NCBI GenBank assembly: GCA_036925085.1
Contig: JAUPFP010000106.1
Span: 62,001 to 126,000, forward strand
Direction: 5' to 3'
DNA: 64,000 nt
Origin: Brachycybe producta
Taxonomy: Eukaryota; Arthropoda; Diplopoda; Playtdesmida; Andrognathidae
The position numbers and the translations under genes were made by a program. The notes beneath the pieces are model-generated. The model had not been told where the DNA came from and searched no databases. It saw nothing but the letters and a program-made list of their open reading frames with translations. Each line of letters begins with the position of its first letter. Position 1 is the stretch's first letter. Below, in pieces: positions 16,059 to 19,223 of the stretch.

Positions 16059-16329
16059 TGTTGGAACTGGAATACAAGTTTGTAAAAGACACCCTTAATG
16101 TGTGTGTGCCCTAGATTAATTGTATCCTGTTCAAGAATATCGAACCCTTTTAAATTCTGTTTTTGGTGGCACCTTAAATTCCTCACATTGTTTTCAAGCC
16201 CTATAAATGTAGCACAAATTTTGTTCGTTTTTTACTCGAAATAAAGATGTTAAAAGAAAGCAACGTGTTATAAAGTTTATTTAAATATTCTATACGGAAT
16301 TACTACGTGGCCATTATCAATTAACAACA
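16059..16329 (+). repeat. 5' LTR of the copia element
   Basis: 271 bp, beginning TGTTGGAACTGG and ending CAATTAACAACA. A TATAAA lies at 16202-16207 and an AATAAA at 16240-16245, marking the likely promoter and polyadenylation region. I see no difference from the 3' LTR in a base-by-base read. Confidence 0.95.
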
Positions 16330-16359
16330 GGTTATGGGCCCAGCACGCTTCCACTGCGC
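16330..16359 (+). promoter_or_regulatory. Primer binding site for a cleaved initiator tRNA-Met
   Basis: Starting directly after the LTR, GGTTATGGGCCCAGCACGC and the next 11 bases are complementary to metazoan initiator tRNA-Met from the D arm through the anticodon loop. They correspond to linear bases about 10-39. Drosophila copia primes with the 5' 39-nt fragment of this tRNA cut in the anticodon stem, and this site begins at exactly that base. The complementarity is long, about 30 bases. Confidence 0.9.
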
Positions 16360-16461
16360 ATATTAACCTGGAAAACGCGAGTCGCGGAAATTTATTTAAA
16401 ACAAAATCGAGTGTTTTTTAAAATAATCAAAAGTATAATTATAAACAGTTCTAAAGTGAAA

Positions 16462-18651
16462 ATGAATGGAAACCACAGTATACGTATAGAGACACTGGGA
16501 AAAGATAACTTTGATACATGGAAATTACAAGCTGAAGCACTTCTTATCAGAAGTGATGTGTGGCACTATGTTGATGGAACATTAAAACGGCCAGAAATAA
16601 TTCCTGGAAATCAAGAGTCTGTGAATGAAGCAACAATTTGGGACAATGCCGACAGAAAAGCAAGGTCTGAAATAATACTAGCCATAAGTCCATCAGAACT
16701 AAAACAAGTTAAAGGTTGTGTAACCTCAAGAGAAGTGTGGTTAAAACTACACAAAATCTATCAGTCTAAAGGACCTGCACGTAAGGCAACTTTGTTGAAG
16801 CAACTTTTACTCAACAAGATGCATGAAGGAGAAGACATGCGTGTACACACATCAAAATTTTTTGATGCAGTGGACAAATTGGAAGAAATGGAGCCCAAAA
16901 TAATAGATGACCTCCTAACCATTTTGCTTCTGTACAGTCTACCAGAAAGTTATGAAAACTTTCGATGTGCAATTGAATCGAGAGATGAACTCCCAAACCC
17001 AGAAACTTTAAAAATAAAGCTCATCGAAGAATATGAGGCCAGGAAAACAAAAGACCGTGATACAGTGGCGGGCGCCATGCTGATCAAGAACAAACATCAA
17101 AAAAGACCAAGTGCTGAAAAACAAGGAAATGAAGGAGAGAAAGGAAGAGGACCCACAAAACAGGTCACAAACTCCCAATTCAAGTTCAAGTGCCATAGAT
17201 GCGGAAAAGTAGGACACAAGGCAATCGATTGCTGGTCCAAAAGACAATCAACATGGCAGAATGCAGCACAAGCAGATGAGGCCTACACCAGTGAACTAAA
17301 TGAACAAGCTGAAAGGCTGAAATCAAACCAGGAAAAGTGGTGTTTGGACAGTGGAGCTACATCTCACATGTGTGCAAGAAAAAAACAATTTTTGCAAGTA
17401 AATAAAACATCAAACAGATTCCTAAATTTGGCAAATAATGGATCAACAAAAATCGAAGGTACAGGACCCCTCCTAATAACTGTGGATGACGGAAGTGGAG
17501 GCAGAACCATAAAGATTGAAGATGGTCTGTATGTTCCAGACTTACGTTCAAACTTGATGTCAGTGGGAAAAATAACTGACAAAGGATATGAAGTACTGTT
17601 CAAGAAACATGCAGCCATCATCCTAAATCCTAAAGGAGAAGTTACAACTGTGGCCAAAAGAATGAATGGACTGTATTATGTGAACACAAACATAGAAAAG
17701 ACAGAAAGTGCAAAAACTATTGAATCCGAGAAATCCAAGTTGGAAGAATGGCATGAAAAATTCGGACATTTGAACGAGAGAAGCCTGAAAGAGCTCGCAA
17801 CGAAAGAAAAGGTCATCGGTCTAAATATCGAAAAAAATGTAAGTCTTCCAATATGTGAAATATGCATAAAAGGCAAACAAACACAGACGCCATTCTCTAA
17901 AAATTCATCAAACAGATGCACAAAACCACTAGAACTTATACACACTGATATATGTGGCCCAATGAGAGTAACCTCCCATGGGGGTGCAAAATATTATGTA
18001 TCTTTTATTGATGACTACTCGAGATGGTGCGAGATACATTTTCTGAAGAAGAAAAGTGATACATTGGCTGCATTTAAACTCTTCAAACAACATGCAGAAA
18101 CAAAAACTGGAAACAAGATACACACAGTGCAGTCTGACAATGGAAAAGAATATTGCAACCTTGAGTTTGACAACTATTTAAAAGAAAATGGAATTCGTCG
18201 ACGACTCACTGTGGAACACACACCACAACAAAATGGAGTTGCAGAAAGAAAAAACAGAACGCTCGTAGAGATGGCCCGATGCATGATGTTGCAGTCTTGT
18301 CTTCCACCATCATTTTGGGCTGAAGCCATCGCCACTGCAGCTCATGTAAGGAACAGATGTCCCTCAAGAAGTCTGAATGGCGAAACACCTTATAAAATGT
18401 GGATGGGAAAGCAACCAACGGTGAGCTACTTTAGAGTTTTTGGAAGTAAAGCATATGCATTGGACAAAACACCTGGGAAGGGAACACTGATGACAGAAAA
18501 TCATATTCAGGATTTGCATTCAAACTATCAAATGCGGCAATCAGCTGGGAGTCAAAGAAACAAAGAACAGTGTCTTTATCAAGCACAGAAGCAGAGTAGA
18601 TGGCACTATCAGAAGCGACCAAAGATGCACTCTATTTGCGTGGTTTCTTGA
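16462..18651 (+). pseudogene. Copia Gag-protease-integrase, truncated polyprotein
   Basis: The ATG at 16462 starts a 729-codon frame. It encodes a copia-type Gag N-terminus (residues about 1-220), then a CCHC zinc knuckle (CHRCGKVGHKAIDC, 244-257). The aspartic protease motif DSG is at 296-298. The pre-integrase zinc finger starts at H431 (WHEKFGHL) and continues to CEIC. The integrase core has D496, D559 and E595, a correct D,D35E spacing. The frame then meets a deletion near 18478-18492, soon after the GSKAYALDK motif. The last 50 or so residues are RNase H sequence read in the wrong frame. The upstream GTG-initiated extension is not needed. The product would carry Gag, protease and most of integrase but no polymerase. 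Confidence 0.93.
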
Positions 18652-18926
18652 GGGAAATGGGAGCTCTTGGAAATCAAAAGACGATTGTCTATAATGACAA
18701 TCAAGGAGCACAGCAGCTGGTCAAAATTCCCATTTTTCACTCCAGAACAAAACACATCGACATTCGCCATCATTTTATTAGAGATGCATATGAAAAAGGG
18801 GATATCGATGTACAGTATATGCCTACACAGGAGATGCCTGCCGACATTTTAACGAAAGGTCTCTTTGGCCCGAAACACAACAAATGTGCAGAAGATTTAG
18901 GAATTATAAATGATGTTATAAAATAA
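18483..18926 (+). pseudogene. Copia RNase H remnant
   Basis: In a different frame from the integrase, the sequence encodes the C-terminal half of copia RNase H. It reads DDRKSYSGFAF, then ISWESKKQRTVSLSSTEAE, then a TAG stop at 18597 where the family normally has an aromatic residue. It continues MALSEATKDALYLRG...RTKHIDIRHHFIRD...ADILTKG. No YVDD reverse transcriptase motif is present anywhere. By comparison with full copia polyproteins roughly 1.5-1.8 kb is missing before this point. Confidence 0.92.
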
Positions 18927-18943
18927 GCAAGAAGTCCAAACTT

Positions 18944-18952
18944 GAGAGGGAG
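18944..18952 (+). promoter_or_regulatory. Polypurine tract
   Basis: GAGAGGGAG directly abuts the TGTTGG start of the 3' LTR. It is the expected plus-strand DNA primer, and the CTTGAGAGGGAG context is typical of copia elements. Confidence 0.9.
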
Positions 18953-19223
18953 TGTTGGAACTGGAATACAAGTTTGTAAAAGACACCCTTAATGTGTGTG
19001 TGCCCTAGATTAATTGTATCCTGTTCAAGAATATCGAACCCTTTTAAATTCTGTTTTTGGTGGCACCTTAAATTCCTCACATTGTTTTCAAGCCCTATAA
19101 ATGTAGCACAAATTTTGTTCGTTTTTTACTCGAAATAAAGATGTTAAAAGAAAGCAACGTGTTATAAAGTTTATTTAAATATTCTATACGGAATTACTAC
19201 GTGGCCATTATCAATTAACAACA
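18953..19223 (+). repeat. 3' LTR of the copia element
   Basis: 271 bp, reading identical to 16059-16329. It is followed immediately by TA repeat. Confidence 0.95.

What the first reader, a model, noticed from the sequence alone, without database searches (positions are those of the whole stretch)
16059..19223. Young copia element that has lost its entire reverse transcriptase
Both 271 bp LTRs read as identical, so insertion is recent. Yet the internal region jumps from just after the integrase core directly into late RNase H, with a frame change and a stop at 18597. Gag, protease and the D,D35E integrase core remain open. Either a deleted copy was mobilised in trans, as a Gag-proficient non-autonomous element, or the deletion happened soon after insertion. 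Sister copies with the same junction would show that a non-autonomous subfamily is spreading.
Basis: partly seen in the sequence, partly recalled or inferred. Interest (0 to 1): 0.7.

Follow-up and report, generated by a model that had tools for sequence, protein, structure and literature searches.

The report
Young copia copy missing reverse transcriptase
A recently inserted jumping gene lost its copying enzyme through one internal deletion seen in no other copy in this genome assembly, beside six full-length sister copies; it looks like an ordinary by-product of a recently active element family, with no sign of a spreading defective subfamily.

Summary
Window 16059-19223 is a copia-type element with identical 271-bp LTRs, an open Gag-protease-integrase frame and no reverse transcriptase. 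The window's assembly (295 Mb) holds seven near-identical copies. Six are full length; five of those six have one open 1350-codon frame. Only the window copy carries the junction; the missing 1588 bp occur at full length in exactly the six sisters. All seven have zero differences between their own LTRs. So no non-autonomous subfamily is seen in this assembly. But a single copy does not show post-insertion deletion: a reverse-transcriptase jump in the cycle that made this insertion also leaves one copy, and I think it likeliest. The breakpoints share a short imperfect repeat (10 of 12), matched by under 1% of random position pairs, without splice-site ends. Corrections: the stop at 18597 is a separate point change private to this copy, and sequence resumes early, not late, in RNase H.

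The parts
15819..16058 (.). (TA)n microsatellite, left part, into which the element inserted
   Evidence: one search reports the array as 15819-16059
16054..16058 (+). presumed 5-bp target-site duplication ATATA, left copy
   Evidence: both sides read ATATA; the AT phase is shifted by an odd number of bases across the insertion, as a 5-bp duplication requires; not independently readable inside a microsatellite
16059..16329 (+). 5' LTR, TGTTG...CAACA, TATAAA at 16202-16207, AATAAA at 16240-16245
   Evidence: TATA and poly-A signals read by eye
16330..16359 (+). primer-binding site, complementary over 30 of 30 nt to tRNA-Met genes of initiator type
   Evidence: 'initiator' is recalled from the tRNA sequence, the tool says tRNA-Met
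16462..18651 (+). open frame of 729 codons; the first 674 codons are Gag-protease-integrase, the rest is an out-of-frame tail after the junction
16534..17055 (+). copia-type Gag domain (PF14223)
   Evidence: E 2.7e-54
17347..17358 (+). protease-like motif DSGA
   Evidence: read by eye in the translation; motif recalled
17920..18222 (+). integrase core (PF00665 rve)
   Evidence: E 2.1e-16
18473..18485 (+). deletion junction: 2-nt exact overlap (18483-18484) inside a 12-nt imperfect repeat shared by the two original breakpoints; 1588 bp missing
18485..18926 (+). RNase H remnant in another frame, starting just after the first aspartate motif, with a private stop at 18597-18599
   Evidence: identified by motif (recalled), Pfam had no match to 18600-18926
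18944..18952 (+). polypurine tract GAGAGGGAG directly before the 3' LTR
   Evidence: role recalled
18953..19223 (+). 3' LTR, identical to the 5' LTR
19224..19339 (.). (AT)n microsatellite, right part; begins with the presumed second copy of the target-site duplication (19224-19228)

Best explanation
A single deletion derivative of a recently active copia family. RNA of a full-length (or nearly full-length) relative was packaged with working enzymes. During reverse transcription the growing strand jumped between two similar purine-rich stretches about 1.6 kb apart, one in the integrase C-terminal region and one in early RNase H. The shortened cDNA, whose LTRs were rebuilt identical as in any cycle, was then integrated into an AT microsatellite. 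Shown: anatomy, identical LTRs, junction unique in this assembly, six full-length sisters, imperfect repeat at the breakpoints. Inferred: that the jump took place in the last cycle and not after insertion.
For: Junction in 1 of 7 copies; the missing segment is present at full length in 6 of 6 sisters, and the other 8 of 14 matches are pieces at 68-84%. 0 differences between own LTRs in 7 of 7 copies, 3794 LTR bases in all, so there was little time for later damage. The breakpoints share 10 of 12 positions left of the junction; of 20,000 random position pairs in the sister 0.09% do as well over the 14 nt left of the junction, 0.7% over 24 nt and 0.6% by local alignment. No GT..AG at the ends of the missing segment, so it is not a copied spliced RNA. 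Two LTR changes, each private to one sister, are present in both LTRs of that sister, so they arose before or during copying, while no within-pair difference arose after insertion. Intramolecular template switching that makes deletions during reverse transcription is established for retroviruses (PMC3187697, passages read).
Against: Exact overlap at the junction is only 2 nt; the passages read say that repeats below 82% identity give under 1% deletion. Microhomology-mediated repair after insertion could leave the same scar. The breakpoint similarity test was designed after seeing the junction. 271-bp LTRs date a single copy weakly: if all 5 private changes of this copy were post-insertion, zero LTR differences would still be expected with probability 0.36; for all seven copies together the figure is 0.086.
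Confidence: 0.5

Rival explanations
1. Post-insertion deletion: a full-length copy inserted, then lost 1588 bp by break repair or replication slippage, while the RNase H stop and other private changes accumulated in place.
For: Single copy; 2-nt microhomology within an imperfect repeat; five private changes, of which three of the four in coding sequence alter the protein, as in an unconstrained copy; two of the five lie within about 115 nt of the junction (binomial 0.055 computed for 106 nt).
Against: No LTR difference in this copy or in any of the 7. If the post-insertion rate is no higher than the 95% upper limit from all seven copies, five or more private internal changes would be expected with probability 0.06 (this assumes similar ages). 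A 1.6-kb deletion in so short a time seems to me less likely than a copying error (recalled rates, not measured here).
Confidence: 0.28
2. Trans-mobilisation: the deletion, and perhaps the RNase H stop, were already present in a parent locus whose RNA was packaged and copied by enzymes of full-length sisters.
For: Cis signals that can be recognised are intact: LTRs, 30-nt primer site, polypurine tract. Sisters with an open frame exist. Two separate lesions in one copy. Five changes shared with no sister fit an unsampled parent. Private changes in the family lean towards pre-insertion origin (probability of no LTR difference otherwise 0.086). A defective copia element packaged by a relative is known: BARE2 in BARE1 particles (PMC3735527, abstract and passages).
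Against: No parent or sibling with this junction in the assembly. One sister carries nine private internal changes without a deletion (two of the nine lie in the segment missing from the window copy), so private changes alone do not mark a trans-mobilised line. The in-cycle route needs no extra unseen deleted locus.
Confidence: 0.19
3. Assembly artefact: a chimeric or collapsed read joined integrase to RNase H.
For: Reads were not available.
Against: The copy carries five changes not found in any sister, three left and two right of the junction; its left flank occurs once in the assembly; the breakpoints share only 2 exact bases.
Confidence: 0.03

Closest known systems
Ty1/copia retrotransposons with half-tRNA priming (Drosophila copia; genus Hemivirus, recalled)
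   Same: Gag-PR-IN-RT-RNH order in the sister scanned (PR and RNH by motif, recalled), 5-bp target duplications in 6 of 6 sisters, primer site for the 5' part of tRNA-Met. Use of a half-tRNA by copia is stated in PMC5371799 (one passage).
   Different: The primer-site match here is 30 nt; about 15 nt is what I recall for Drosophila copia (not checked).
Deletion derivatives of LTR retroelements made by template switching
   Same: Internal deletion at a short repeat, intact ends, identical LTRs.
   Different: Nothing essential; mechanism inferred, not shown; the repeat is shorter and less perfect than the experimental ones in PMC3187697 (passages).
BARE2 (barley copia parasite of BARE1)
   Same: Copia copies lacking a protein function but packaged or packageable through intact cis signals.
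   Different: BARE2 lacks Gag and is a subfamily (PMC3735527, abstract and passages); this copy lacks RT and is single.
Athila pol-less families of Arabidopsis
   Same: Coding Gag kept, pol enzymes lost, trans-mobilisation proposed (PMC2410132, passages).
   Different: Athila pol-less elements form whole families; here one copy.

Membership tests
Ty1/copia LTR retrotransposon | integrase upstream of reverse transcriptase in one pol frame | tested here: met
   sister L051: rve 487-587, RVT_2 852-1103; the window copy keeps only the integrase
Ty1/copia LTR retrotransposon | TG...CA LTRs, primer site and polypurine tract next to them | tested here: met
Ty1/copia LTR retrotransposon | 5-bp target-site duplication | tested here: met
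   6 of 6 sisters; in the window copy only consistent, because the target is an AT repeat
half-tRNA-primed copia (Hemivirus) | primer site complementary to the internal end of the 5' half of initiator tRNA-Met | tested here: met
   30 of 30 nt in all 7 copies; ARAGORN calls tRNA-Met at the match in 3 of 5 loci scanned and nothing in L037 and L039; that the tRNA is the initiator is recalled; actual priming not testable
non-autonomous subfamily (BARE2-like, TR-GAG-like; TR-GAG recalled) | two or more insertions sharing the same defect at different sites | tested here: not met
   1 of 7 copies in this assembly
non-autonomous subfamily (BARE2-like, TR-GAG-like; TR-GAG recalled) | mobilised in trans by an autonomous partner | not testable with these tools
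   needs population or expression data
retrocopy of a spliced copia RNA | GT..AG at the ends of the missing segment | tested here: not met
   in all three placements allowed by the 2-nt overlap the segment starts with A and ends with A

The most novel reading that the evidence does not exclude
The window copy is the first sampled insertion of a newborn RT-less but Gag-, protease- and integrase-encoding lineage, already defective in its parent by deletion and by an RNase H stop, and moved in trans by full-length sisters. It would be a non-autonomous element caught at the start, with its donor polymorphic or absent in the sequenced individual.
Probability: 0.19. Interest if true: 0.45.

Novelty: new member of a known kind. 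Interest (0 to 1): 0.25.

Why it matters
It gives a datable set: seven insertions of one copia family, all with identical LTR pairs. One of the seven has a large deletion and one other has a one-base frameshift. That is a place to ask how often defective copies arise per insertion and whether they are ever copied again. By itself it is a routine deletion derivative.

Tried and rejected
Spliced-RNA origin rejected (no GT..AG). Non-autonomous subfamily rejected for this assembly. Haplotig or empty site sought by the window's flanks: the left flank matches only its own place (1 match); the right flank matches its own place and 39 members of an interspersed repeat at 70-83% (40 of 134 candidates were scored); no empty allele was found. 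The flank tried for the C298 sister is satellite (234 matches, 40 of 668 candidates scored), so an empty site could not be read; the flank tried for the C93 sister has, besides itself, two short matches at 80-81% on the same contig. The flanks of the other four sisters were not searched. A count of all copia reverse transcriptases (family search PF07727) was asked for five times and never answered, so nothing is said about other copia families. Species not identified; no name was available. Paper searches; one search found none. I make no claim that such a copy is unreported.

My checkpoint note places the junction at about 18490-18495; that is wrong, and searches put it at 18482-18485. In one search the right-hand anchor failed, so its right offsets, deletion sizes and differences beyond window position 18498 are meaningless; one search replaces them.

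Full report
What is there. Window 16059-19223 is a 3165-bp copia-type LTR retrotransposon on the + strand. Its LTRs (16059-16329, 18953-19223) are identical over 271 bases, begin TGTTG and end CAACA. It sits inside an AT microsatellite (15819-16058 and 19224-19339); ATATA on both sides and the odd phase shift of the AT run fit a 5-bp target duplication. A 729-codon frame (16462-18651) holds copia Gag, gag-pre-integrase, the pol beta-barrel domain and the integrase core, but no reverse transcriptase. A protease-like DSGA is visible at 17347-17358 (by eye).

The family in this genome. The window lies in an unnamed 295-Mb assembly of 442 contigs. A 271-base LTR query gave 20 matches: 14 at 99-100%, which pair into seven elements; four at 80-85%; and two pieces at 72-74% on C13. 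Of the four, three show no other match to the element within the 4.5-5.5 kb fetched and one, on C3, adjoins an RNase H remnant. The gag query gave 47 matches: seven full-length at 99-100%, one 61-bp piece at 93%, and 39 short matches of 28-30 bases that fall on the primer-binding site. No solo LTR at 99% or more was listed. Six of the seven elements are full length, 4754 bp (one 4755 bp); five of the six have a single open 1350-codon frame and one has a one-base insertion that breaks it. All six have perfect 5-bp target duplications, and all seven have zero differences between their own LTRs.

The deletion. A query across the junction gave 15 matches: the window copy whole; two separate parts in each of the six sisters; and two weaker partial matches on C26 and C3. 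The missing 1588 bp gave 14 matches: full length in exactly the six sisters, and eight pieces at 68-84%. The missing segment runs from within the SH3-like C-terminal integrase domain through the whole of RVT_2 into early RNase H. The two original breakpoints share 2 exact bases within a 12-base purine-rich imperfect repeat with 10 matches. Of 20,000 random position pairs in a sister, 0.09% match as well on the 14 bases left of the junction, 0.7% over 24 bases, and 0.6% by local alignment. This test was chosen after seeing the junction. The segment's ends do not carry GT..AG, so the copy is not a retrocopy of a spliced RNA.

A second lesion. It lies in the RNase H frame itself and is private to this copy: all six sisters have a sense codon there. 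The window copy has five private differences from all six sisters: a 1-bp gap in the leader, two amino-acid changes (residues 145, in the Gag domain, and 288, just before the protease-like motif), one silent change and this stop.

Dating and order of events. Within-pair LTR differences are 0 in 3794 bases over seven copies. Eighteen private internal changes in 27,895 bases would predict 2.4 LTR differences if all were post-insertion (probability of zero 0.086); for the window copy alone the figure is 1.03 (0.36). Neither is strong. Two LTR changes, one in each of two sisters, are present in both of that sister's LTRs, so they preceded or accompanied copying. Shared coding changes are mostly silent (10 silent, 3 altering), private ones mostly altering (4 and 11; Fisher p 0.021; counted with non-coding sites and the frameshift left out; inside the deleted segment the window copy cannot be scored). 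This fits a family kept functional through past cycles, with unselected changes on the last step of each copy. No sister is an obvious parent; the window copy shares one LTR state and one silent site only with the C298 copy.

Mechanism. I think a template jump during the reverse transcription that made this insertion is the likeliest origin (0.5). It needs no deleted parent, predicts a single copy, leaves identical LTRs, and is a known error of retroviral reverse transcriptases (PMC3187697, passages), though at this short and imperfect a repeat it would be a rare one by the same passages. Post-insertion deletion (0.28) and copying of an already deleted parent in trans (0.19) remain open.

Comparison. 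The element is an ordinary Ty1/copia member by domain order, LTRs, primer site and target duplication. It fails the defining test for a non-autonomous subfamily in this assembly, one defect shared by several insertions. BARE2 and the pol-less Athila elements are the nearest cases that I found in print of coding-deficient elements shown or proposed to use a relative's proteins (PMC3735527, abstract and passages; PMC2410132, passages).

Primer site. The 30 bases after the 5' LTR are the same in all seven copies and match tRNA-Met genes exactly. ARAGORN calls tRNA-Met at the match in three of five loci scanned and no gene in the other two, L037 and L039. Counted along the 72-nt genes called in L041 the match covers nucleotides 10-39. 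That the tRNA is the initiator is recalled. The 3' limit fits a half-tRNA primer as in Drosophila copia (PMC5371799, passage). The 5' limit would fit a copying stop at a methylated G9; that modification is recalled, not tested.

Limits. One assembly, unnamed species, no reads, no expression data. Copy counts from the search tool are lower bounds in principle, though every candidate of the first look was scored.

Noticed in passing
window 16330-16359: Primer-binding site matches tRNA-Met (initiator type, recalled) over 30 nt in all seven copies; counted along the 72-nt genes of L041 the match covers nt 10-39 and ends just before nucleotide 9, which would fit a plus-strand copying stop at a modified G9 (recalled).
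   Followed up: partly
L041, L042, L048 (contig C5 near 3.58 Mb): tRNA-Met genes in a tandem array with a unit of about 195 bp (L041); further 30-nt matches cluster near 3.24, 3.32 and 3.36 Mb of the same contig, not checked as genes.
   Followed up: no
L049 (contig C298): One full-length sister copy sits inside a satellite array shared by many small contigs; its flank gave 234 matches (40 of 668 candidates scored). It is also the sister with the most private changes.
   Followed up: partly
L055-L060: Old relatives, mostly 72-88% identical (three lone LTRs, LTR pieces, two remnants with RNase H or RT pieces); apart from one 61-bp piece at 93% nothing listed lies between about 88% and 99%. The family is old here with one recent burst, or was re-acquired.
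   Followed up: partly
window 15719-19603: The AT microsatellite target lies in or beside an interspersed repeat with many copies at 70-83% (right side only; the left-flank query ended at 15745 and did not show it); CAGGGTTGCC at the left and GGCAACCCTG at the right, read by eye, look like terminal inverted repeats of a DNA transposon.
   Followed up: no
window 56799-58080: Exons of an APC8/CDC23 gene: ANAPC8 domain and TPR repeats.
   Followed up: no
window 23783-24438: 656-bp minisatellite of 15-bp units, 44 copies, 94% matches, open in several frames.
   Followed up: no
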